Source: Chloroflexota bacterium (GTDB taxonomy: Bacteria; Chloroflexota; Dehalococcoidia; UBA2979). Taken from it: a DNA stretch of 64,000 nucleotides. The DNA is taken from the NCBI GenBank assembly GCA_002716405.1, contig PBBA01000005.1, positions 42,456 through 106,455 on the forward strand. Direction: 5' to 3'. Made by a program: the position numbers and the translations under genes. The notes beneath the pieces were generated by a model. It did not search any database, had not been told where the DNA came from, and saw only the letters and a program-made list of their open reading frames with translations. Below are positions 2,006 to 64,000 of this stretch, piece by piece. Numbering within the stretch: position 1 is the stretch's first letter; each line of letters opens with the position of its first letter.

Positions 2006-4254
2006 GGTACCTTGATAATTACAGAGTTATCTTGTTTCCAAACAATGTCCCAATCTTTAAATCGATCAGCAATGTTCCACCCGAACAATTTTTTTTCTTC
2101 ACGCCCTATATATATGTGTGTCACACGATATTTTTTGGCAACTTCTAATCCTACATTACTCGAACCTAAACTATATATTTGATCAACTGCTACAACACGA
2201 TCATATAAAGAAAGTTCTGGACCACGCCATTGAATTTGATGGCCAGGCCAATTTAAAATTGTAGGAATACCACTTGCAGCAGCAAGATAACCTCCTTTTC
2301 CATAAGCATGTGTAATAGCTTGAAGTAACACATGTTCTTGAGGAGATAATTTTTCTTTGGCGTAACTTATTGCACCATACAAGCCAGGATCGCTAGATTT
2401 TAGGTAAACTACAGCATCTAGATTAATTTTCTGATCTTCATATCCACGACTCAGAGCCATCATCGGAGCATAAATATATGAAAACCCATATATTAAGAAA
2501 CAAACAGACAAGATTGGAAGGCAATATCTTATATTTTTCCTTGTAAAAATCTCATCTTCATAATTAAGTGGCTTAGCTAATCTATTCACAATAATTCCTA
2601 TCGAAATAGAGCCAGCGACGGCTAGAAGTGTCCAGACGTGATACCAAATCTTGAATACTGTATTAAACCTACCTGGGGTTCCTGTAACAATGTTAAACAG
2701 TTCAGTTAAGAAAATAATCGAAAAAGCCAACGCAACTAACAAAAAAATTAAACCCATAGATTGATTATTCTGACTATCATGGTAAAAGGATTGCTGTGCA
2801 GTAACTACAATCACTGCCCCTATTAATACAAGTGCTAACCATCCATTTCCTCTATCGAAAAGTACACTTGCATCACCAGAGATAATTTGAATAAAGACAA
2901 AGATCGTAACCAGAAACATGATTATTGCAATTACGAAAGATACAATGCGGAAATTAACTGATAAATGAGTCATGAACAGTAAAACTATGATGGGAAGAAC
3001 AGGTACTAACCAGATCAATAGCAGATTTCTTAGACCAGTTGTTTCTTCATTGACAACTCCTAAAGAAATAGACGGTGACTCAAGATTCAATATAAAAGGT
3101 GATGCAAAAATCAATGCTAGGATGACGGGCAATATCATGTATTTACATGTGTTTAATAAAGCTAACGACCAATGATTTTCATTACGCACATGTAGAAAAA
3201 AAACTACTCCAAACCAAACAAAACCATAGGAGATGACATCCCAACTATTAGTGCAAAATAATGCGGCATAAATCATAGCAATGAAAACTAAGTTAAGTGG
3301 AGAATTGAGCCAATATTTAAAACTCAAATTAGATCTGTTAATATAAGTTTTTACTACTATTGCAATTGCAACTATAGATAATGGCAGTGCTAAAACATGC
3401 GCATGTAGATCACCAAGTATCAATGAAAATGCGGGGAATTCAACTATTGGCCCTTCTAATATTCGAGTGGCATGCCACCACCACCACCATTCATCAAAAA
3501 AGGACCCTCCTTCTTGATAAACAATAAAGAAAGTCTTAACCAGATTATAAAAGCCTGCAAGTGGTCCAAGCCATAACAAACTCACAACTGCTGTAAATCC
3601 AACAAAAATTTGAGACCGAAAATGAACAATTCTATTGACACTGAAAATATCTAAAGATAATCCAAAAATAGCAACACCTACCATTGCGCCGATCATTGCA
3701 AGACCAAGGTTAAAAGCTACTTCGGGTTGATTAAAAGAAATACGACTAACAATATCTACCCCTAAATGACCCAAATGATAATAAGAGATTTCTTCACCAG
3801 ACAACCAAGGGTCTAAAGGAGGGAAATAATCAGTACGGTTTACTGAAATCAACATCATCAGATCCATAGGTTTCTCAGTATTTTCTGCATTCGGAGTCTG
3901 GATTCTAATGAGTGCAAGTAATATAAAAATTACTAAAAAGACTATTTCAGCAACTAAAATTAATTTCCATTTAGCAATAATTTTTGAAAACAATTCACGA
4001 TTCGTGAAGTATAAAAATACGTTCGCCAAAAAACAAAAACTTACTAATACCCATAACAAGTAATTGTCATAATTAAATACTCTAGACCAACCAATCCACC
4101 AAGTAATCAAAGCAAGAAAACTTAAACTAATAGATTTCGTGTAAAAAATTCCAATAGTCCGCATCGAATTGAACAAAAAATGCGAAACGGGAATAAATAA
4201 CAAACCTATGAGGCATATAGCAATATACCAACGAATTATCTCAAACATCAGCAT
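2002..4254 (-). CDS. DUF2298 / Chlor_Arch_YYY-domain membrane protein
   Basis: 750-aa polytopic ORF with 'DPWLSGEEISYYHLGHL' and 'ILGDLHAHVLALPL' motifs; paired with the Agl23-like gene. Confidence 0.75.
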   Translation of the reverse strand: MLMFEIIRWYIAICLIGLLFIPVSHFLFNSMRTIGIFYTKSISLSFLALITWWIGWSRVFNYDNYLLWVLVSFCFLANVFLYFTNRELFSKIIAKWKLILVAEIVFLVIFILLALIRIQTPNAENTEKPMDLMMLISVNRTDYFPPLDPWLSGEEISYYHLGHLGVDIVSRISFNQPEVAFNLGLAMIGAMVGVAIFGLSLDIFSVNRIVHFRSQIFVGFTAVVSLLWLGPLAGFYNLVKTFFIVYQEGGSFFDEWWWWWHATRILEGPIVEFPAFSLILGDLHAHVLALPLSIVAIAIVVKTYINRSNLSFKYWLNSPLNLVFIAMIYAALFCTNSWDVISYGFVWFGVVFFLHVRNENHWSLALLNTCKYMILPVILALIFASPFILNLESPSISLGVVNEETTGLRNLLLIWLVPVLPIIVLLFMTHLSVNFRIVSFVIAIIMFLVTIFVFIQIISGDASVLFDRGNGWLALVLIGAVIVVTAQQSFYHDSQNNQSMGLIFLLVALAFSIIFLTELFNIVTGTPGRFNTVFKIWYHVWTLLAVAGSISIGIIVNRLAKPLNYEDEIFTRKNIRYCLPILSVCFLIYGFSYIYAPMMALSRGYEDQKINLDAVVYLKSSDPGLYGAISYAKEKLSPQEHVLLQAITHAYGKGGYLAAASGIPTILNWPGHQIQWRGPELSLYDRVVAVDQIYSLGSSNVGLEVAKKYRVTHIYIGREEKKLFGWNIADRFKDWDIVWKQDNSVIIKVP

Positions 4255-54836: not shown

Positions 54837-55943
54837 ATGATATTGAACCGCCTTCAACTTGTCCGTGAGGAAATGAGACATTCGAATCTAGATTTTTTAC
54901 TTATTACGGATCCTAGTAATCGCCAATGGATCTCTGGATTCACTGGATCATCCGGCATTGTTCTTATCTCAAAACAAACGGCTTATATTGCTACTGATTC
55001 GCGTTATTGGATACAAGTAGAACAACAAAGTCCTGATTTTGAATTGGTAAAAATAGCAGGTGCTACAACTTCTATAGCCACAGAATTGATAGAAAAAATC
55101 TCTGATGCCAGTAATTTTGGGTATGAACCAGAAAACTTAACAATGAAGCAATATCAAGATTACACTAAGATAATTTCATCAATGACTTGGAAAAATACTC
55201 CTAACTTTATTGCTGCACCTAGTATTATCAATAAACTTCGAATGTCTAAGGACAGCGGTGAACTAACTTCTCTCATTAAAGCAGTTGAAATAGCAGACGC
55301 AGGGATGAATCATGCCTTTCAAATTATACAACCAGGTATGACTGAAAAAACTTTAGCTTGGGAAATACAAAAAAATGTGATCGAAAATGGTGCAGACAGT
55401 CTATCCTTTAACACAATAGTTGCTGGAGGTGAACGGGGTGCACTACCTCATGCAAGACCCCTTAATATAGCTCTAGCAAATAAAACAGGTGTGGTTATTG
55501 ATATGGGTGTTAAGGTTAACGGTTATTGTTCTGATCTCACGCGAACATTCTTTCTTGGTACTCCAACTGATAAATTTAAAAAAGTATATGATGTAGTCTT
55601 GACTGCACAAATGATGGCTATCGAACGTATAGAGGTCGGGATGACTGGAGCGGAGGCACATGAAATAGCAGCTTCAGTCATCGCAGAAATGGGTTATGGA
55701 AATTATTTTGGTCATGGATTAGGTCATGGAGTAGGGATCGATGTACATGAAGCACCAAGGTTATCTCCTGCATCTGATACTATTCTAGAAAATGGCCATG
55801 TTTTTACTATTGAACCAGGAATATATCTCCCAGGTTGGGGAGGTGTTCGAATTGAAGATCAATGCTTGATGGAAGCAGGTAAGGTAAGATCTCTAACTAA
55901 GTCACCAAAGTTGGATCTTGAAATTGGAGTAATAAATGATTAG
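54837..55943 (+). CDS. pepP: Xaa-Pro aminopeptidase (M24)
   Basis: 'GHGLGHGVGIDVHEAPRLS', 'FTIEPGIYLPGWGGVRIED'. Confidence 0.93.
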   Translation: MILNRLQLVREEMRHSNLDFLLITDPSNRQWISGFTGSSGIVLISKQTAYIATDSRYWIQVEQQSPDFELVKIAGATTSIATELIEKISDASNFGYEPENLTMKQYQDYTKIISSMTWKNTPNFIAAPSIINKLRMSKDSGELTSLIKAVEIADAGMNHAFQIIQPGMTEKTLAWEIQKNVIENGADSLSFNTIVAGGERGALPHARPLNIALANKTGVVIDMGVKVNGYCSDLTRTFFLGTPTDKFKKVYDVVLTAQMMAIERIEVGMTGAEAHEIAASVIAEMGYGNYFGHGLGHGVGIDVHEAPRLSPASDTILENGHVFTIEPGIYLPGWGGVRIEDQCLMEAGKVRSLTKSPKLDLEIGVIND

Positions 55944-56499
55944 CACGTCTGATTTTAAAAAAGGACTGTCCTTAGAAGTAGATGGAACTTTATACCAAAT
56001 AGTAGAAGTGCATCATGTAAAAACCAAAAAATCTGCAGTTTATAGAGTAAAACTTAAAGATCTACGAGAAGGACATATAATAGAAAAGTCATTTAATGCT
56101 GGTGAGAAATTAGCAGCTGCTAGGGTTGAGCGACGTGAAATGCAATATCTCTATGGAGATAGAGATATCTATACTTTTATGAATACGGAAACTTTTGACC
56201 AAATTGAAGTTCCTGAAAAAATAGTTGAGGATGCCCTTCCTTATCTTACTGAAAATGACAAAGTTCAATTAATACTCTATGGGGATGAGGCATTGTCGAT
56301 TGAAATTCCTCCAGCAGTAGAATTACTAATAGTTGAATCTGATCCTGGTGTAAAGGGGGATACTGCCACTGGTGCAACTAAGCCAGCAAAATTAGAAACA
56401 GGTTTAGTTGTAAATGTTCCGATATTCATTAATCAAGGAGATAGAATTAAGGTATCAACTTCAAACGGCGAATATCTGGAGCGTGTAGCTACAGCATAA
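55936..56499 (+). CDS. efp: Elongation factor P
   Basis: EF-P domain organisation and 'GDTATGATKPAKLETGLVVNVPIFINQGDRIKV'. Confidence 0.96.
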   Translation: MISTSDFKKGLSLEVDGTLYQIVEVHHVKTKKSAVYRVKLKDLREGHIIEKSFNAGEKLAAARVERREMQYLYGDRDIYTFMNTETFDQIEVPEKIVEDALPYLTENDKVQLILYGDEALSIEIPPAVELLIVESDPGVKGDTATGATKPAKLETGLVVNVPIFINQGDRIKVSTSNGEYLERVATA

Positions 56500-56500
56500 G

Positions 56501-57712
56501 ATGTATCCAGAAACACAAAGTGTCTCACAACTCACCACTAAGATTCGTTCAACGATCGAAAATAGCGATGAGCTAATAGATATCTGGGTTGAAGGTGAGA
56601 TATCCAACTTAAGCCAACCCAGATCAGGGCATATTTATTTCACATTAAAAGATGAAAATGCACAGATGCGCTGTGCATTTTTCAAACAAAATCATCATGG
56701 ATCTAATGAACATTTAGACTTGGGAGTATCTGTCATAGTACATGGCAAAGTAACAATTTACGAACCTCAAGGTAACTTACAGATTTTAATTGATTTTATA
56801 CAGCCAGCAGGTATAGGAGCGTTAAACGCAGAATTTGAAAGAAGAAAACAAAGATTGCAGAAAATGGGAATGTTCGCAGAGGAAAGAAAAAGGCCTCTCC
56901 CACGCTTCCCAATGCATATTGGTGTCGTAACTTCACCTACTGGTGCTGCACTGAGGGATATTCAAACAATTCTTAGTCGAAGGTGGCCTTTGGCAAAAAT
57001 TACTGTTTACCCAACAGAAGTACAAGGAATCAATGCGGGGATAGCCATAAGTAATGCAATTAAAATAATTTCAAAAGCTGAAGAAAAAACACAAATGCCT
57101 GAAATATTAATAGTAGCGCGAGGTGGTGGATCAGCAGAAGATTTGTGGGCTTTTAATGAAGACATCGTTGTTGAAGCTGTTTTTGCCTCACCAATACCTG
57201 TTATATCAGGTGTTGGACATGAAACAGACGTTACATTAATCGATTTAGTTGCTGATATACGTGCTGCTACCCCATCTGTTGCCGCAGAAATGGCAACACC
57301 CGATCAGAATGAAATACATGCCCATATACAAAATTTAATCTCAGGTCAACATTATTATTTAACATCATTAATTCGAAATTTAAATCAGGTAATACAATCA
57401 CACAAAATGAAGATGGGAAACATACAACCAAGTATTGAGCATTACAAAGATCAAACAAACTACATGTTGCGCTCATTAAATTACAACGTAAACATGTTAA
57501 ATTTTGTTGCAAATGAAAAGCTAAAAGCAATTAGCAGTCAACTCCGAACACTTTCACCAAAAGCAGTGATGAAAAGAGGATTTACGATCGCATCTACTTT
57601 AGACGGGGAAATAGTTACACTTGCAAAATCGGTTGAAGAAAATGATTTTTTGAAGCTTCAGTGGCAAGATAGTAGTCATATAATTCGTATCGAGAGTAAA
57701 GATGGAAAATAA
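56501..57712 (+). CDS. xseA: Exodeoxyribonuclease VII large subunit
   Basis: 'VWVEGEISN...SGHIYFTLKD'-like OB domain, 'VVTSPTGAALRDI', 'RGGGSAEDLWAFN'. Confidence 0.95.
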   Translation: MYPETQSVSQLTTKIRSTIENSDELIDIWVEGEISNLSQPRSGHIYFTLKDENAQMRCAFFKQNHHGSNEHLDLGVSVIVHGKVTIYEPQGNLQILIDFIQPAGIGALNAEFERRKQRLQKMGMFAEERKRPLPRFPMHIGVVTSPTGAALRDIQTILSRRWPLAKITVYPTEVQGINAGIAISNAIKIISKAEEKTQMPEILIVARGGGSAEDLWAFNEDIVVEAVFASPIPVISGVGHETDVTLIDLVADIRAATPSVAAEMATPDQNEIHAHIQNLISGQHYYLTSLIRNLNQVIQSHKMKMGNIQPSIEHYKDQTNYMLRSLNYNVNMLNFVANEKLKAISSQLRTLSPKAVMKRGFTIASTLDGEIVTLAKSVEENDFLKLQWQDSSHIIRIESKDGK

Positions 57713-57935
57713 ACAAACACAAAATAATGATGAAGGTGTTTCTGAAAGTTTCGAAGACTTAATTCAGCAACTTGAAATAATTACTACTAAATTAGAGCAA
57801 GGTGGTATCGATTTAAATACTTCAATCACCTTATATGAACAAGGTGTGACTATTGCAAGACATTGCCAAGAGTTATTGAATAATGCTGGAAATAAGATAC
57901 AAGATTTGCAACAGCAATTAGATCAGGAATCTTGA
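57702..57935 (+). CDS. xseB: Exodeoxyribonuclease VII small subunit
   Basis: 'SFEDLIQQLEIITTKLEQGGIDLNTSITLYEQGV'. Confidence 0.93.
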   Translation: MENKQTQNNDEGVSESFEDLIQQLEIITTKLEQGGIDLNTSITLYEQGVTIARHCQELLNNAGNKIQDLQQQLDQES

Positions 57936-57936
57936 A

Positions 57937-58737
57937 TTGACTCTTAAACTTGGTTGGTTTACAACACGTGGGGCAAGCTCAAGCAAAATATACGAAACCG
58001 TACAAAACGCGATACATTCTGGTGAACTAGATGCTGAAATTTCATTTGTCTTTTCTAATCGAACTGCTGGAATTGAAAAAGTTACTGATGATTTTTTTGA
58101 AAAAGTTAAATCAGATGGAATTTCATTAATTACTCACTCTTCAATCGACTTCCGAAAGCAAAAAGACGGAAGGCGTTCGAAAAATGGAGAGCCCCTTCCT
58201 AGTTGGAGAAATGCATACGATCTAGAGATCGAAAAGTTAATATCAAAATATGATTTTGACATAGGCGTTTTAGCTGGATATATGCTTATATTAACCAAAT
58301 CTTTTGTAGAGAAGTTTCCCTTAATAAATTTACATCCCGCTCTTCCCGATGGACCAACTGGTACCTGGCAAGAAGTAATACAAGAACTCATTATATCCGA
58401 TGCAAAAAAAACCGGACTCATGATACATCAAGCCATTGCTGAAGTAGATCTTGGTCCAGTATTAGCTACATGTGAATTCAAATTGGACTCTGCCGCATTC
58501 TATGATGCTAAACAAAGAGTCAAAGAAAATACAAATTTAGATACAAGTGAGTTATTCAAACTAATACGAGAAGAAACTGTAAAACGTGAATCTCCTTTTG
58601 TAACAGTATTACTACAAGAGATCACACAGGGCAGAATCTCCATCCAAGATATTGTCACACAGGCGAATACACCTTCAAACAAAGAGCTACCAGTAGACTT
58701 AACTCTCCAAGTAGAAAAATGGTTAGCGGAAAATTAG
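57937..58737 (+). CDS. PurN-like formyltransferase family protein
   Basis: 'LAGYMLILTKSFVEKFPLINLHPALPDGPTGTWQEVI' and 'GLMIHQAIAEVDLGPVL'; TTG start. Confidence 0.8.
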   Translation: MTLKLGWFTTRGASSSKIYETVQNAIHSGELDAEISFVFSNRTAGIEKVTDDFFEKVKSDGISLITHSSIDFRKQKDGRRSKNGEPLPSWRNAYDLEIEKLISKYDFDIGVLAGYMLILTKSFVEKFPLINLHPALPDGPTGTWQEVIQELIISDAKKTGLMIHQAIAEVDLGPVLATCEFKLDSAAFYDAKQRVKENTNLDTSELFKLIREETVKRESPFVTVLLQEITQGRISIQDIVTQANTPSNKELPVDLTLQVEKWLAEN

Positions 58738-58748
58738 TTGGATAATGA

Positions 58749-59507
58749 ATGAATAATTTATCAAATAATGATCAGAATTTACTTAGGTTACAAAAAATCC
58801 TTTCCAAATGTGGTTATGGTAGTCGAAGGTCCTGTGAAAAATTAATCATTGAAGGTAGAGTTTCAGTTGATGGTCAAGTAGCAAAATTGGGAATGAAAGC
58901 AAATCCATTCGAACAATCCATTTTATTAGATGGGCAATTGATTTCTTATCCAAACGAAGATACAACAATCGTAATGAACAAACCTAGTGGTTTTATAGTC
59001 AGTACAAAAGATGAAAACAGTATCCCTAATATTTATAACCTTCTCCCTTATCAATCTAAATCTCTTCGGTATGCAGGTCGTTTAGATGTGAATACTGAAG
59101 GTTTATTGCTATTCAGCACAGATGGAGAGTTAATTTATAGGTTGACGCACCCAAAATTTGAAATAAAAAAAGTTTACGAAGTTATAATTGAAGGCTATCT
59201 ATCCAAACATGCACAAACACAGCTCAGTAATGGAATTGATTTAGATGGAACATTGACCAAACCTGCAAATGTAAAGATCACCAGTGAAAATAATGACCGT
59301 AGTGTTATTGAATTAATTATTCACGAAGGTCGTAACCATCAGGTCAGAAGAATGTTTGATGCAATAGGCATTACAATTTTATATTTGCGAAGAATTAGTG
59401 TTGGCCCTCTATCTCTAGGAGCAATTAGGCGAGGAAAATACAAAGTGCTGAATGAGGATGAACTAGAAAACTTAAAAACAATTGTAGGAATCCATGACAG
59501 GAGCTAA
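58749..59507 (+). CDS. Pseudouridine synthase RluB/RsuA family
   Basis: S4 domain plus 'YAGRLDVNTEGLLLFSTDGELIYRLTHP'. Confidence 0.92.
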   Translation: MNNLSNNDQNLLRLQKILSKCGYGSRRSCEKLIIEGRVSVDGQVAKLGMKANPFEQSILLDGQLISYPNEDTTIVMNKPSGFIVSTKDENSIPNIYNLLPYQSKSLRYAGRLDVNTEGLLLFSTDGELIYRLTHPKFEIKKVYEVIIEGYLSKHAQTQLSNGIDLDGTLTKPANVKITSENNDRSVIELIIHEGRNHQVRRMFDAIGITILYLRRISVGPLSLGAIRRGKYKVLNEDELENLKTIVGIHDRS

Positions 59508-59586
59508 TCGATTTGTAGACGGTTCAATCCTTCCGTCGATATGATCGTAATAATGCAGACGCTGGAGGAATATTATTTCAAACAAG

Positions 59587-60270
59587 ATGCTTGAATTATC
59601 GCTGGCAATTGATGGCCCAGCTGCCTCAGGTAAAAGTGTAGTCGGGAGAGGACTCGCCGAACGCTTAGGCATTGGATTTGTTGATACAGGATTAATATAT
59701 AGAACTTGTACATTGGCAGTAATTCGTGAAAAAATTGACCCTCTTGATGAACAAAAAATATTTGAATTAGTGGAGAAAATAAATATGGATATGCGATGGG
59801 AATTACTCTCATCGCCAGAAATGTTTATTGATAATGAAAATGTAACCTCAGAGCTTCGAACTTCAATTGTCGAAACAAACGTTTCCTATATTTCTCGTAT
59901 AGAAAAGGTTCGCACTAATCTTGTTGCAAGACAAAGAGATATAGCGCAACGAGAACCAGTTATTATGGCTGGGCGAGATATCGGAACACGTGTACTTAGA
60001 GAGGCACGTACAAAATTTTTCTTGAACGCATCCACCGAAACACGTGCGAATCGGAGACTGCAAGAAACAATTAGCTCAGGAGAAAATACTTCTTACGAAG
60101 AAATATTCGTATCTACACAACGACGAGACCACCTGGATGATTCTGGGCATAGAGCAGTAAGACCGGAACAGGCATCATCAGATGCAATTATTGTTGAAAC
60201 TGATAACTTGGATGTTGAAGCAGTCATTGACTTATGTGTTTCGATCTATCGAAAGACAAACCAAAATTAA
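59587..60270 (+). CDS. cmk: Cytidylate kinase
   Basis: 'LAIDGPAASGKSVVGRGLAERLG', 'MAGRDIGTRVL'. Confidence 0.94.
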   Translation: MLELSLAIDGPAASGKSVVGRGLAERLGIGFVDTGLIYRTCTLAVIREKIDPLDEQKIFELVEKINMDMRWELLSSPEMFIDNENVTSELRTSIVETNVSYISRIEKVRTNLVARQRDIAQREPVIMAGRDIGTRVLREARTKFFLNASTETRANRRLQETISSGENTSYEEIFVSTQRRDHLDDSGHRAVRPEQASSDAIIVETDNLDVEAVIDLCVSIYRKTNQN

Positions 60271-60279
60271 GAGCGGATA

Positions 60280-60981
60280 ATGTATCAACTAACGTCCAAA
60301 TGCGTTTATGCCTTCCTTACATTTTCGGTAAGTCGTCTAGCGAAAATTCTCACTAGAATCGAAATTGTAGGTATCGAACATATTCCAAAAAGTGGCCCCT
60401 TGATTTTGATTTGCAACCACTCACATAATGTTGACCCACCTTTGGTCGGATCTTTTTTCTCAAGAACAATATATACTATGGCCAAATCAGAATTGTTTAT
60501 AAATCCATTGTCGCGCTGGTTATTTCGATCAGTTAATGCCTTCCCTGTAGAACGTCTAAAAGCAGACTTACAAGCCCTACGAATTGCAAGAACAATTCTC
60601 AATCAAAAAAAGGCTTTATTACTATTCCCTGAAGGAACACGCAACCATGGAAAAGGATTGAATCCGGCACTACCAGGTGCGGCGCTAATTGCTCTAAAAA
60701 CGAAATCTCCTATTCTCCCTATTGGTATATCAGGGACACATCTCATTTCATGGAAATCAATATGGTTTCTATGGCTAATCAACCGTCGTCCAAAATTAAT
60801 TATAGAATTTGGAGAACCTTTTGAATTACCTCAAATGAATAAAGAACAAGACATAGTCGAAAAATCGACAGATTATATGATGCGAAAAGTCGCAGATTTA
60901 CTATCAGAAAGATATCGTGGAGTATACGGAGAAAAAACAAAAAATCAGATCGTCGTAGCAAGGGCAACTTCAAGGAAGTAG
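60280..60981 (+). CDS. plsC: 1-acyl-sn-glycerol-3-phosphate acyltransferase (PlsC-like)
   Basis: 'NHSHNVDPPLVG', 'LFPEGTRNHGKGLN'. Confidence 0.92.
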   Translation: MYQLTSKCVYAFLTFSVSRLAKILTRIEIVGIEHIPKSGPLILICNHSHNVDPPLVGSFFSRTIYTMAKSELFINPLSRWLFRSVNAFPVERLKADLQALRIARTILNQKKALLLFPEGTRNHGKGLNPALPGAALIALKTKSPILPIGISGTHLISWKSIWFLWLINRRPKLIIEFGEPFELPQMNKEQDIVEKSTDYMMRKVADLLSERYRGVYGEKTKNQIVVARATSRK

Positions 60982-61003
60982 ACATCTCGAGGAGAGAGAA
61001 TAT

Positions 61004-62842
61004 ATGTGTGGAATCATTGGCTACTGCGGCAAAGATGATGCTGGTACGACGATATTACGAGGGTTAAAAGCTTTAGAGTACAGAGGTTACGATTCTTCAG
61101 GAATAGCACTTGCAAACCCAAATGGATCCTTGTCAATTACTCGATCAGTTGGAAAAATTTCAGCATTAATCGAAAAAACTAAACTCAATCTTATTGCGTC
61201 ATCATCCGGAATAGGGCACACGCGATGGGCTACACATGGTGCAGTAAATGAGGCAAACACACATCCACATACTGATCAATTGGGTAAGGTAGCTGTAGTA
61301 CATAATGGAATAATTGAAAATTTTGAGACATTAAAGAAAAACTTTTCTCCTGAAATCTTTAGTTCGGAAACGGATACTGAAGTCATTGCACACATGATTG
61401 CACTTGAAATGGATAGTGGTCAAAACCTATTACAGGCAGTCCAAAACACATTACACAAAGCAACAGGATCATTTTCTATCGTAGTTGTTAGTGAATTAAA
61501 TCCGCATAAAATAGTTGCCGCCAGGAAAGGTAATGCCAGTGGCCTAGTTGTTGGATTTGCAAAAGATGCAATTTGTGTTGTTTCAGACATTACAGCTCTC
61601 ACAGATATTATTGAACACATTACATTTTTGGATGCCAATGAATATGTCGAATTCTCATCAAAAGAAGCAATTTTCTACAGTGATACTGGAGAAGAAATCG
61701 ATAAAAAGGAGCTACAACTTCCCTTTGAGCATAGCGTGCAAAATCTTGGTCAGTTTAAACATTACATGCTGAAAGAGATCAATGAACAGCCCGAGGCCAT
61801 ATTGGATACAATACGAGGAAGATATCAGTCAGATACTGGTAGTATTTATTTGCAAGAATTACAAATATCCTCAGAACAGATCTGCGATATAAACAGAGTC
61901 GTTTTCGTTGGAATGGGAACATCTTCAAATGCCACACTTGTTGGAAGACATTATATGGAGCGCTTTGCAAAAATTCCTTCTGAGGTAGATAACGCATCTG
62001 AGTTCCGATATAGACAGCCTATCCTCGATAAGAACACTCTTGTCATATCTGTAGCACAATCTGGAGAAACTGTAGACACACTTGCCGCAATGGACGAAGC
62101 AAAACGAGCAGGATGTATGCAAATTACAATATGTAATAATCCAGGTACACAAACTACACGTATAGCAGACTCTTCAATTTATATGAGATGTGGACAGGAA
62201 ATATCTGTTGCAAGTACAAAAACAATGACTGCATCAATGGTACTAATGCATGCCCTTGCACTTTATTTAGGGAAAATCAGGGGGACATTATCATCTGAAA
62301 CAGAGCAACAACAAATTAATGCTGCATTACATTTACCTGTTGCACTTGGGCAAGCTTTAGAACTATCGAATCAAATAGAAGAAATTGCAAGCCGCTATCA
62401 TACCTTTGATGATTTTCTATTTTTAGGACGCGGGTTAGGGTTTCCTATAGCAATAGAAGGAGCACTCAAACTTAAAGAAATTTCTTATATCAATGCTATA
62501 GGATATGCAGCTGGAGAAATGAAACACGGCCCCATTGCATTGATTGACAGCCAAATGCCTACCATAGCTATAGCTCCAAGAGACACCGTATTCGAAAAAA
62601 TGGTCTCAAATATCCAACAAATACGTGCACGGCAAGGAAAGGTTATTGCACTAGTATCACATGGGGAAAAATCATTGAATAACTTGGCAGATGAAATCAT
62701 TGAATTGCCTGAAGTTGACCCTCTACTATCACCAATAGTAACTGTCGTACCACTTCAACTACTTGCATATCATATTGCACAAAAGCGAGGATTGGACATT
62801 GATCAGCCTAGGAATCTAGCAAAAACAGTTACTGTAGAGTAA
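61004..62842 (+). CDS. glmS: Glutamine-fructose-6-phosphate aminotransferase
   Basis: 'CGIIGYCGKDDAG', two SIS domains, C-terminal 'DQPRNLAKTVTVE'. Confidence 0.97.
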   Translation: MCGIIGYCGKDDAGTTILRGLKALEYRGYDSSGIALANPNGSLSITRSVGKISALIEKTKLNLIASSSGIGHTRWATHGAVNEANTHPHTDQLGKVAVVHNGIIENFETLKKNFSPEIFSSETDTEVIAHMIALEMDSGQNLLQAVQNTLHKATGSFSIVVVSELNPHKIVAARKGNASGLVVGFAKDAICVVSDITALTDIIEHITFLDANEYVEFSSKEAIFYSDTGEEIDKKELQLPFEHSVQNLGQFKHYMLKEINEQPEAILDTIRGRYQSDTGSIYLQELQISSEQICDINRVVFVGMGTSSNATLVGRHYMERFAKIPSEVDNASEFRYRQPILDKNTLVISVAQSGETVDTLAAMDEAKRAGCMQITICNNPGTQTTRIADSSIYMRCGQEISVASTKTMTASMVLMHALALYLGKIRGTLSSETEQQQINAALHLPVALGQALELSNQIEEIASRYHTFDDFLFLGRGLGFPIAIEGALKLKEISYINAIGYAAGEMKHGPIALIDSQMPTIAIAPRDTVFEKMVSNIQQIRARQGKVIALVSHGEKSLNNLADEIIELPEVDPLLSPIVTVVPLQLLAYHIAQKRGLDIDQPRNLAKTVTVE

Positions 62843-62865
62843 GTTTGAACAGTGAATAATTATGA
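62823..62865 (+). repeat. 43-bp direct repeat, copy 1 (glmS tail plus next ORF start)
   Basis: aaacagttactgtagagtaagtttgaacagtgaataattatga; 40/43 identical to copy 2. Confidence 0.9.
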
Positions 62866-63925
62866 GACCATAGAAATTACAAAAGATGATTTCTTGCCTT
62901 ATCTACATTGGTGTTTAATAAAATTCCAAAACGACCCTTCAAGCAGGAGAGGTATTGGAGGTGTAAATCACAAAATAGGAGGATTTATAGATAGATTTGC
63001 TAATCAATGTGTTAATTGGATAATCTTTAATCATCTACTCCGAGAAGAAAAATTTAAAGTTGATCCGGACTATTTTTTTTACAAAGAAAAGTCAGCAAAA
63101 AAATGTGCTGATGTCATCGGACTAAAAGGAGAAAACGGAATCGTACCTTTAACGCATTTTAATAAAACTGAATGGGTCCATATTAATAAGGCACCATTCA
63201 TAGAGGTAAAAACTCTTAGGAAAGACCAGCAGATCGCACATCTTGGGTTGACCCAATATCATGATGATAACTATTTCGTCTACGTTGAATCAGAATTTGA
63301 TGAACTGTATCTATTTAACTTAATTGAGGGTTTTCTCGAGAGAGATTTTGATATGAGCATGAACGAAATATATGTAAAAGATAATTCTGATAATATTATT
63401 CTCACTCCTAAAGTAGAAAAACCCAACAAGATTGCCTCTATAAGATTAATGGGTGTTTATAAAGGAATTGATTTAAAAGAGCACAATCTAGAATTCCCTA
63501 TGGGTAAAAACCCTAGATATATTGCCAGTGTAGATAAAATAAATGAGGAAGATACTATCAATTTTAACAAATTCCAATCAACTAAAATCAAAGACGATAG
63601 ATTTATCTATGATCCTCTAGAAGAGAGACTCAATGAATGGTTGCCTATTTATACTAAGTCAAATTCTATTAAGATGATTCACAAAGAAAGAAAAACAAAA
63701 GGTTATTTGTTTATTGAAGTCGAAGAACCATGTTTTCTTAATGAATATAAACTAGAAAAAGGATTTTACAGAATTAATTTTAAAGTATTAGACAGGAGTG
63801 GAAAGGAAACAGAAATATTTAACCATAAATCAGTTTATGACAAAGTTAATCATCATTATTCAGTTTTCCCAAATGATCGAACAGACGAACTTTTAGAAGA
63901 ATTAAAATTATTTTACTATGCTTAA
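62852..63925 (+). CDS. Putative PD-(D/E)XK nuclease-like protein of unknown family
   Basis: 357 aa, GTG start; motif 'CADVIGLKGEN...(about 25 aa)...PFIEVKTLRKDQ' matches D-x(n)-ExK; no recognised homolog from memory. Confidence 0.6.
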   Translation: MNNYETIEITKDDFLPYLHWCLIKFQNDPSSRRGIGGVNHKIGGFIDRFANQCVNWIIFNHLLREEKFKVDPDYFFYKEKSAKKCADVIGLKGENGIVPLTHFNKTEWVHINKAPFIEVKTLRKDQQIAHLGLTQYHDDNYFVYVESEFDELYLFNLIEGFLERDFDMSMNEIYVKDNSDNIILTPKVEKPNKIASIRLMGVYKGIDLKEHNLEFPMGKNPRYIASVDKINEEDTINFNKFQSTKIKDDRFIYDPLEERLNEWLPIYTKSNSIKMIHKERKTKGYLFIEVEEPCFLNEYKLEKGFYRINFKVLDRSGKETEIFNHKSVYDKVNHHYSVFPNDRTDELLEELKLFYYA

Positions 63926-63956
63926 ATTCATAGATTCTAATTCTCTGTTCAAACTT

Positions 63957-63999
63957 AAACAGTGACTGTGGAGTAAGTTTAAACAGTGAATAATTATGA
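63957..63999 (+). repeat. 43-bp direct repeat, copy 2 at window edge
   Basis: aaacagtgactgtggagtaagtttaaacagtgaataattatga. Confidence 0.9.
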
Positions 64000-64000
64000 A

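What the first reader, a model, noticed from the sequence alone, without database searches (positions are those of the whole stretch)
62823..64000. Accessory ORF behind glmS bounded by a 43-bp direct repeat of the glmS 3' end
Copy 1 (62823-62865) covers the last glmS codons (TVTVE*) and the first five codons of the next ORF (MNNYE). Copy 2 (63957-63999) repeats this with 40/43 identity, 1134 bp downstream. The differences inside the glmS-tail part are synonymous (GTT/GTG, GTA/GTG), yet an in-frame TAA sits just upstream of copy 2, so it is not an intact glmS. Either an element integrated at the glmS 3' end and rebuilt it (attL/attR-like), or a [glmS tail + ORF] unit is tandemly duplicated and a paralog starting MNNYE lies just past the window. 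Modular cargo after glmS would be a plausible accessory or defence island.
Basis: partly seen in the sequence, partly recalled or inferred. Interest (0 to 1): 0.72.

Follow-up and report, generated by a model that had tools for sequence, protein, structure and literature searches.

The report
Gene cassettes stacked behind glmS
Behind the housekeeping gene glmS this bacterium carries an inserted gene, bounded by two copies of the last ~18 bases of glmS and by inverted repeats just inside them; the same layout sits behind glmS in distantly related alphaproteobacteria, so the end of glmS looks like a landing site where small, partly DNA-restriction-related gene cassettes pile up.

Summary
The 43-bp repeat (40/43) is real. 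Position 64000 is the end of contig C2, so copy 2 lies at a contig end. Relatives have glmS facing ppdK. Here ppdK lies near the start of contig C3, behind a HhH-GPD DNA glycosylase and an m5C DNA methyltransferase, so the C2/C3 gap is probably one island with restriction-modification-type genes. The methyltransferase is absent from the 392 other same-class genomes searched, but 90% identical in a Rhodospirillaceae MAG, where it also lies in a glmS-adjacent insertion.

Scanning downstream of glmS in 79 loci gave 8 tail-like copies ((S/T)VTVE*) on the glmS strand and 0 on the other, all within 2.8 kb of glmS. The ORF357 unit has 17/18-bp inverted repeats exactly inside its two tail copies. Mid-contig units in two alphaproteobacterial genomes share this layout with unrelated repeat sequences; among 53,466 windows only the G000 and G412 junctions reach that inverted-repeat score.

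Best reading: cassettes integrate at the last ~18 bp of glmS, each bringing a new tail and leaving the old one as a scar, as known for tRNA ends in additive genomic islands. No recombinase was found. ORF357's function is a motif guess.

The parts
61004..62842 (+). glmS, intact, 612 aa, anchor gene of the island
62823..62865 (+). Copy 1 of the 43-bp repeat: last glmS codons (TVTVE*) and start of ORF357
62840..62857 (+). Left terminal inverted repeat of the ORF357 unit; begins with the glmS stop codon
62852..63925 (+). ORF357 (GTG start, MNNYE...), cargo of the glmS-proximal cassette; no family match; PD-(D/E)XK-like residues ADVIG...FIEVKT by eye only
63940..63957 (-). Right terminal inverted repeat, 17/18 complementary to 62840-62857
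63957..63999 (+). Copy 2: glmS-tail scar (TVTVE*) followed by the left end of a further unit
63974..63991 (+). Left-end repeat of the next unit (TAAGTTTAAACAGTGAAT)
63986..64000 (+). First codons (GTG AAT AAT TAT GAA, MNNYE) of a second ORF cut by the contig end

Best explanation
The 3' end of glmS is an integration hot spot for small gene cassettes. A cassette, probably as a circle whose joint reads right inverted repeat - glmS tail - left inverted repeat, recombines at the last ~16-20 bp of chromosomal glmS. It brings its own copy of the tail ((S/T)VTVE*), so glmS stays whole, and the displaced tail is left as a scar at the far end. Repeated events stack cassettes, presumably with the youngest next to glmS. 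Here the glmS-proximal cassette is ORF357 (1.1 kb). Copy 2 is the scar and probably the left end of a second, related cassette. Beyond the contig gap the island ends, before ppdK, in the 3' end of a gene like the one behind the same pair in Prochlorococcus, a HhH-GPD glycosylase (inferred to repair T:G mismatches from deaminated 5-methylcytosine) and an m5C methyltransferase. The recombinase is not in any of the units seen and would act in trans. SHOWN: repeats, inverted repeats, recurrence in other genomes, MTase/glycosylase beside ppdK, glmS-ppdK order in relatives. INFERRED: joining C2 to C3, circular intermediate, crossover in the tail, recombinase in trans, nuclease function of ORF357, youngest-first order.
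For: Repeat and inverted repeat. Tail-like peptides downstream of glmS: 8 on the glmS strand, 0 on the other, over 79 loci and 536 kb, all within 2.8 kb of glmS; background 1 in 1.6 Mb of strand-bases outside glmS and its copies. One of the 8 (L051) is probably chance. Inverted repeats exactly inside the tail copies in G412 (22/23 with one gap) and G395 unit 2 (19/22), both mid-contig, each reached by none of 3000 shuffles, as in G000; weaker in G393 (8/8, p=0.009). The only windows scoring >=29 among 53,466 are at the G000 and G412 junctions (this control starts at the glmS stop, so it could not see G395 unit 2). Differences between own tail and scar over five sense codons: 15 at third positions, 1 first, 1 second (partly ascertained by the peptide search). 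In G393 the same MTase (90% aa identity) and a glycosylase lie between glmS and gor, which are adjacent in relative L160. glmS/ppdK convergent in relatives, while in G000 ppdK sits near the start of C3 behind the MTase and glycosylase. The start of C3 aligns at 82% DNA identity with the Prochlorococcus MTase-glycosylase locus into the gene behind it.
Against: No integrase or transposase was seen in the units. Copy 2 is at a contig end and the C2-C3 join is inferred from synteny. Two alphaproteobacterial units (G412 unit 2, G395 unit 1) have no inverted repeat. G405 has a 129-bp tail repeat, no inverted repeat, and mixed codon-position differences. Scars outside G000 and G405 were found by a peptide pattern, so synonymy is partly built in. 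Among the other genomes of G000's own class no convincing case was seen. The glmS-tail fragment on contig C10 is not explained.
Confidence: 0.62

Rival explanations
1. Transposon-type insertion with target-site duplication: elements with terminal inverted repeats are inserted at the glmS end by a transposase or Cas1-like integrase in trans, and the ~16-18 bp tail copy is a target duplication, as in casposons.
For: Terminal inverted repeats of variable sequence directly beside ~16-18 bp direct repeats at the 3' end of a coding gene. Casposons have TIRs, target duplications of median 15 nt and 3'-end targets including a coding gene (PMC4046053).
Against: Target duplications start identical; here the copies differ, in G000 only at synonymous sites. 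Copy 1 and copy 2 also share 23 bp beyond the stop codon. No transposase or Cas1 seen in the units, although the gap is unread.
Confidence: 0.18
2. Tandem duplication inside the genome of a [glmS tail + ORF] unit, followed by divergence, with no mobile element.
For: The homology runs across the stop codon into the first five codons of the next ORF, and copy 2 opens a similar start.
Against: The inverted repeat at the right end of the ORF357 unit and the same layout with unrelated sequences in other genomes; a duplication does not make inverted ends. ORF357 is absent from relatives.
Confidence: 0.08
3. Homology-assisted illegitimate recombination: foreign DNA carrying [glmS 3' end + next gene] recombines through glmS on one side and joins at random on the other, which repeats a piece of the glmS end.
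For: G405 has a 129-bp repeat of the glmS end without inverted repeats.
Against: Scar lengths cluster near 18 bp, and inverted repeats mark three units exactly at the boundary; random joining gives neither.
Confidence: 0.07
4. Assembly artefact: the last bases of contig C2 are a mis-extension into the glmS tail of another strain.
For: Copy 2 ends at the contig end.
Against: An inverted repeat of the left end, not part of glmS, precedes copy 2 exactly where two mid-contig cases in other genomes have theirs.
Confidence: 0.05

Closest known systems
Additive flexible genomic islands anchored at tRNA ends (Ca. Methylopumilus PMC10872708; Ca. Actinomarinales PMC7771536; Alteromonas PMC4119200)
   Same: Small cassettes added next to a housekeeping gene whose last ~20 bp recurs as direct repeats at cassette ends; aquatic, often streamlined bacteria; variable cargo
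   Different: The target is a protein-coding gene whose reading frame is rebuilt; inverted repeats sit just inside the tail copies (not mentioned in the passages read)
Integron gene-cassette arrays
   Same: Small cassettes without their own recombinase, stacked beside one site; the presumed circular joint would be an imperfect palindrome of variable sequence
   Different: No RYYYAAC...GTTRRRY pair in attC arrangement at the junctions; no integrase seen; the shared sequence is the glmS tail in the loop, the variable part is the stem
Casposons (PMC4046053)
   Same: Variable TIRs beside ~15-nt direct repeats at the 3' end of a coding or tRNA gene
   Different: No Cas1 or PolB in the units seen; units of 0.24-2.8 kb; tail copies not identical
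Tn7-like elements at attTn7
   Same: Use glmS as a safe landing site
   Different: Tn7 recognises the glmS 3' region but inserts downstream of the coding region (PMC4046053); here the repeat lies inside the coding tail; no tns genes seen
Restriction-modification insertion with long target duplication (Nobusato et al. 2000, seen here only as a reference in PMC3031569)
   Same: Genes inserted between direct repeats of target DNA
   Different: Here at one gene end, with inverted repeats, recurring in distant lineages

Membership tests
Additive island with gene-end direct repeats | Recurring copies of the last ~20 bp of the anchor gene at cassette borders | tested here: met
Additive island with gene-end direct repeats | Cassettes vary between close relatives at the same place | tested here: inconclusive
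   Congener G002 has a different sequence and ORF after glmS, but only 222 bp are held; no glmS found in G001
Additive island with gene-end direct repeats | Anchor is a tRNA gene | tested here: not met
   The anchor is glmS; so this is filed as a variant that works like such islands, not as a member
Integron | attC core sites RYYYAAC / GTTRRRY at cassette ends | tested here: not met
   absent at the G000 junction; no junction has the pair in attC arrangement
Integron | IntI integrase next to the array | tested here: inconclusive
   None recognised in the stretches read, but the gap is unread and the genome was not searched for it
Casposon | Cas1 (and PolB) inside the element | tested here: inconclusive
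   The ORF357 unit holds one ORF without family match; the gap is unread
Casposon | TIRs plus direct repeats of about 15 nt | tested here: met
   direct repeats not identical
[quoted passage not shown]
   The tail itself is repeated
Type II restriction-modification system (island cargo) | DNA methyltransferase | tested here: met
   PF00145 E=1.4e-78; TIGR00675 E=1.2e-86
Type II restriction-modification system (island cargo) | Cognate restriction endonuclease | tested here: inconclusive
   ORF357 has only a motif; the gene cut at the start of C3 resembles L087 ORF247, which has no family match; L088 has a Bsp6I-type REase beside the related MTase

The most novel reading that the evidence does not exclude
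A cassette-capture system that works like an integron but uses the coding tail of an essential gene as its receiving site: cassettes carry joints whose sequence varies while the inverted symmetry and the glmS-tail centre are kept, and a recombinase in trans inserts them behind glmS in distantly related bacteria, spreading restriction-modification genes.
Probability: 0.2. Interest if true: 0.85.

Novelty: new variant of a known kind. Interest (0 to 1): 0.6.

Why it matters
It would add a protein-coding gene end to the tRNA ends known as anchors of cassette islands in streamlined aquatic bacteria. It gives a sequence signature (a glmS tail copy next to an inverted repeat of the sequence after the glmS stop) that can be searched in any genome. 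It suggests one way restriction-modification genes reach bacteria with few recognisable mobile elements, and makes the question of the missing recombinase testable.

Tried and rejected
ORF357: no match in Pfam, PADLOC, PHROGs, phages, plasmids, GTDB contigs, viral contigs or other same-class genomes; only chance-level hits in NCBIfam (E=0.08, far below cut-off), PDB sequences (E=0.13) and two genomes (E~0.007), of which the one read (L147) looks like an S41-type peptidase. Single-sequence AlphaFold model useless (pLDDT 34.7), so no fold search was run. ORF357 against the 365-aa gene beside the related MTase in L088: no significant similarity. No exact copies of the repeat or of the alphaproteobacterial left-end sequence in viral contigs. 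A third, degenerate copy near ppdK: not significant (p=0.25). L051 scar-like peptide ends an in-frame 51-aa ORF and has no inverted repeat; taken as chance. Rfam on window 55000-64000: nothing.

Full report
OBSERVATION. The two copies at 62823-62865 and 63957-63999 match at 40 of 43 bases, 1134 bp apart, far beyond shuffled sequence, and the glmS tail is the best downstream repeat among 47 long reading frames of the window. Position 64000 is the last base of contig G000:C2, so the second unit cannot be read. New here: a reverse-complement copy of the bases that start at the glmS stop codon (TAAGTTTGAACAGTGAAT, 17/18) ends at the base where copy 2 begins. ORF357 therefore lies between terminal inverted repeats, which in turn lie between two copies of the glmS tail.

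WHERE THE ISLAND ENDS. In relatives glmS faces ppdK; in G025 (L039) they are 65 bp apart, and ppdK-like sequence follows glmS in several others. In G000 ppdK lies near the start of contig C3. Before it come, from the contig start: the 3' end of a gene that aligns with the one behind the glycosylase in Prochlorococcus L087, a HhH-GPD DNA glycosylase (PF00730) and, on the other strand, an m5C DNA methyltransferase (PF00145). G+C is 26-30% in these genes and ORF357 against 37-39% around them. In congener G002 the contig ends 222 bp after glmS, with a different ORF there, and ppdK is cut at another contig end; no glmS or ppdK was found in G001. The C2/C3 join is inferred from this synteny.

CARGO. 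The methyltransferase is found in G000 only among 393 same-class genomes, but is 90% identical in Rhodospirillaceae MAG SP279 (L086), 84% in a Prochlorococcus single cell (L087) and 77% in alphaproteobacterium AAA536-K22 (L088), in all three with the glycosylase. In L088 a Bsp6I-type endonuclease lies beside it. In L086 the pair lies downstream of glmS, between glmS and gor, which are adjacent in relative L160, together with a NgoFVII-type endonuclease and further methyltransferases. ORF357 has residues ADVIG...PFIEVKT as expected of a PD-(D/E)XK nuclease (read by eye), but no search or model confirms it.

THE PATTERN ELSEWHERE. I read downstream of glmS in 79 loci (536 kb) for a peptide like the glmS tail followed by a stop. 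There were 8 on the glmS strand and none on the other strand, all within 2.8 kb of glmS; the background is about 1 in 1.6 Mb of strand-bases. They are in G000, G393 (L086), G395 (two), G405, G412 (two) and G020 (probably chance). Three units have inverted repeats exactly inside the tail copies: G000 (17/18), G412 unit 1 (22/23 with one gap), G395 unit 2 (19/22), none of 3000 shuffles reaching each; G393 is weaker. The repeat sequences look unrelated. Comparing each glmS post-stop sequence with 53,466 downstream windows, only those at the G000 and G412 junctions score 29 or more (G395 unit 2 does not start at glmS itself and so was outside this control). G412 and G395 are mid-contig, which argues against an artefact of contig ends. 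In G393 and G395 the sequence after a tail copy encodes a small protein with a PF07508 recombinase-type DNA-binding domain and no catalytic domain; the G393 scar is followed by sequence like the G395 left end.

MECHANISM. Tail copies differ mostly at third codon positions (15 of 17). In G000, found by DNA, both differences are synonymous; the others were found by peptide pattern, so this is only suggestive. In G405, also found by DNA, the differences are mixed. If each copy was once a working tail, insertion exchanged tails rather than duplicated the target. That is how integration at tRNA ends is understood: additive islands of Ca. [quoted passage not shown] The inverted repeats fit recombinase binding or a folded joint, as in integrons, but integron core sites were not met. 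Casposons share variable TIRs, ~15-nt repeats and 3'-end targets (PMC4046053); no Cas1 was seen, but the gap is unread.

LIMITS. The lineage is not named by the tools; Dehalococcoidia/SAR202-like is my guess. GlmS of G000 and of L086 are 38% identical. L086 and L181 were reached through the methyltransferase, G405 and G412 through relatives of the SP279 genome, and some loci repeat a genome, so 8 copies is not a frequency estimate.

Noticed in passing
G000:C10:108596-108655 (L003:8597-8656): A 60-bp glmS-tail fragment (...DIDQPRNLA), 94% identical over 50 bp to the glmS of G002, lies between a DAO-type oxidoreductase gene and tRNA-Arg(tcg). It stops where the 43-bp repeat of the window begins. 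In G001 and G002 the N6/N4 methylase gene and the tRNA-Arg region are about 30 bp apart without this insert.
   Followed up: partly
L003:7282-8514; L077; L079: The DAO-type gene sits beside tRNA-Arg in G000 but beside tRNA-Thr in G001 and elsewhere in G002.
   Followed up: partly
L181:1479-1832, 2705-3034; L086:9278-9607: Small proteins with a recombinase-type DNA-binding domain and no catalytic domain directly follow glmS tail copies in two alphaproteobacteria; a 101-bp stretch of one recurs at L181:4468-4568.
   Followed up: partly
L084:665-1663 and L086/L087/L088: A methyltransferase-glycosylase pair shared by four distantly related genomes at 77-90% protein identity (methyltransferase), which suggests transfer across lineages.
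   Followed up: partly
L183 (G405:C76), 0-911 bp after glmS: A 911-bp insert bounded by a 129-bp repeat of the glmS end (93%), with a 172-aa ORF on the opposite strand; no inverted repeats.
   Followed up: partly
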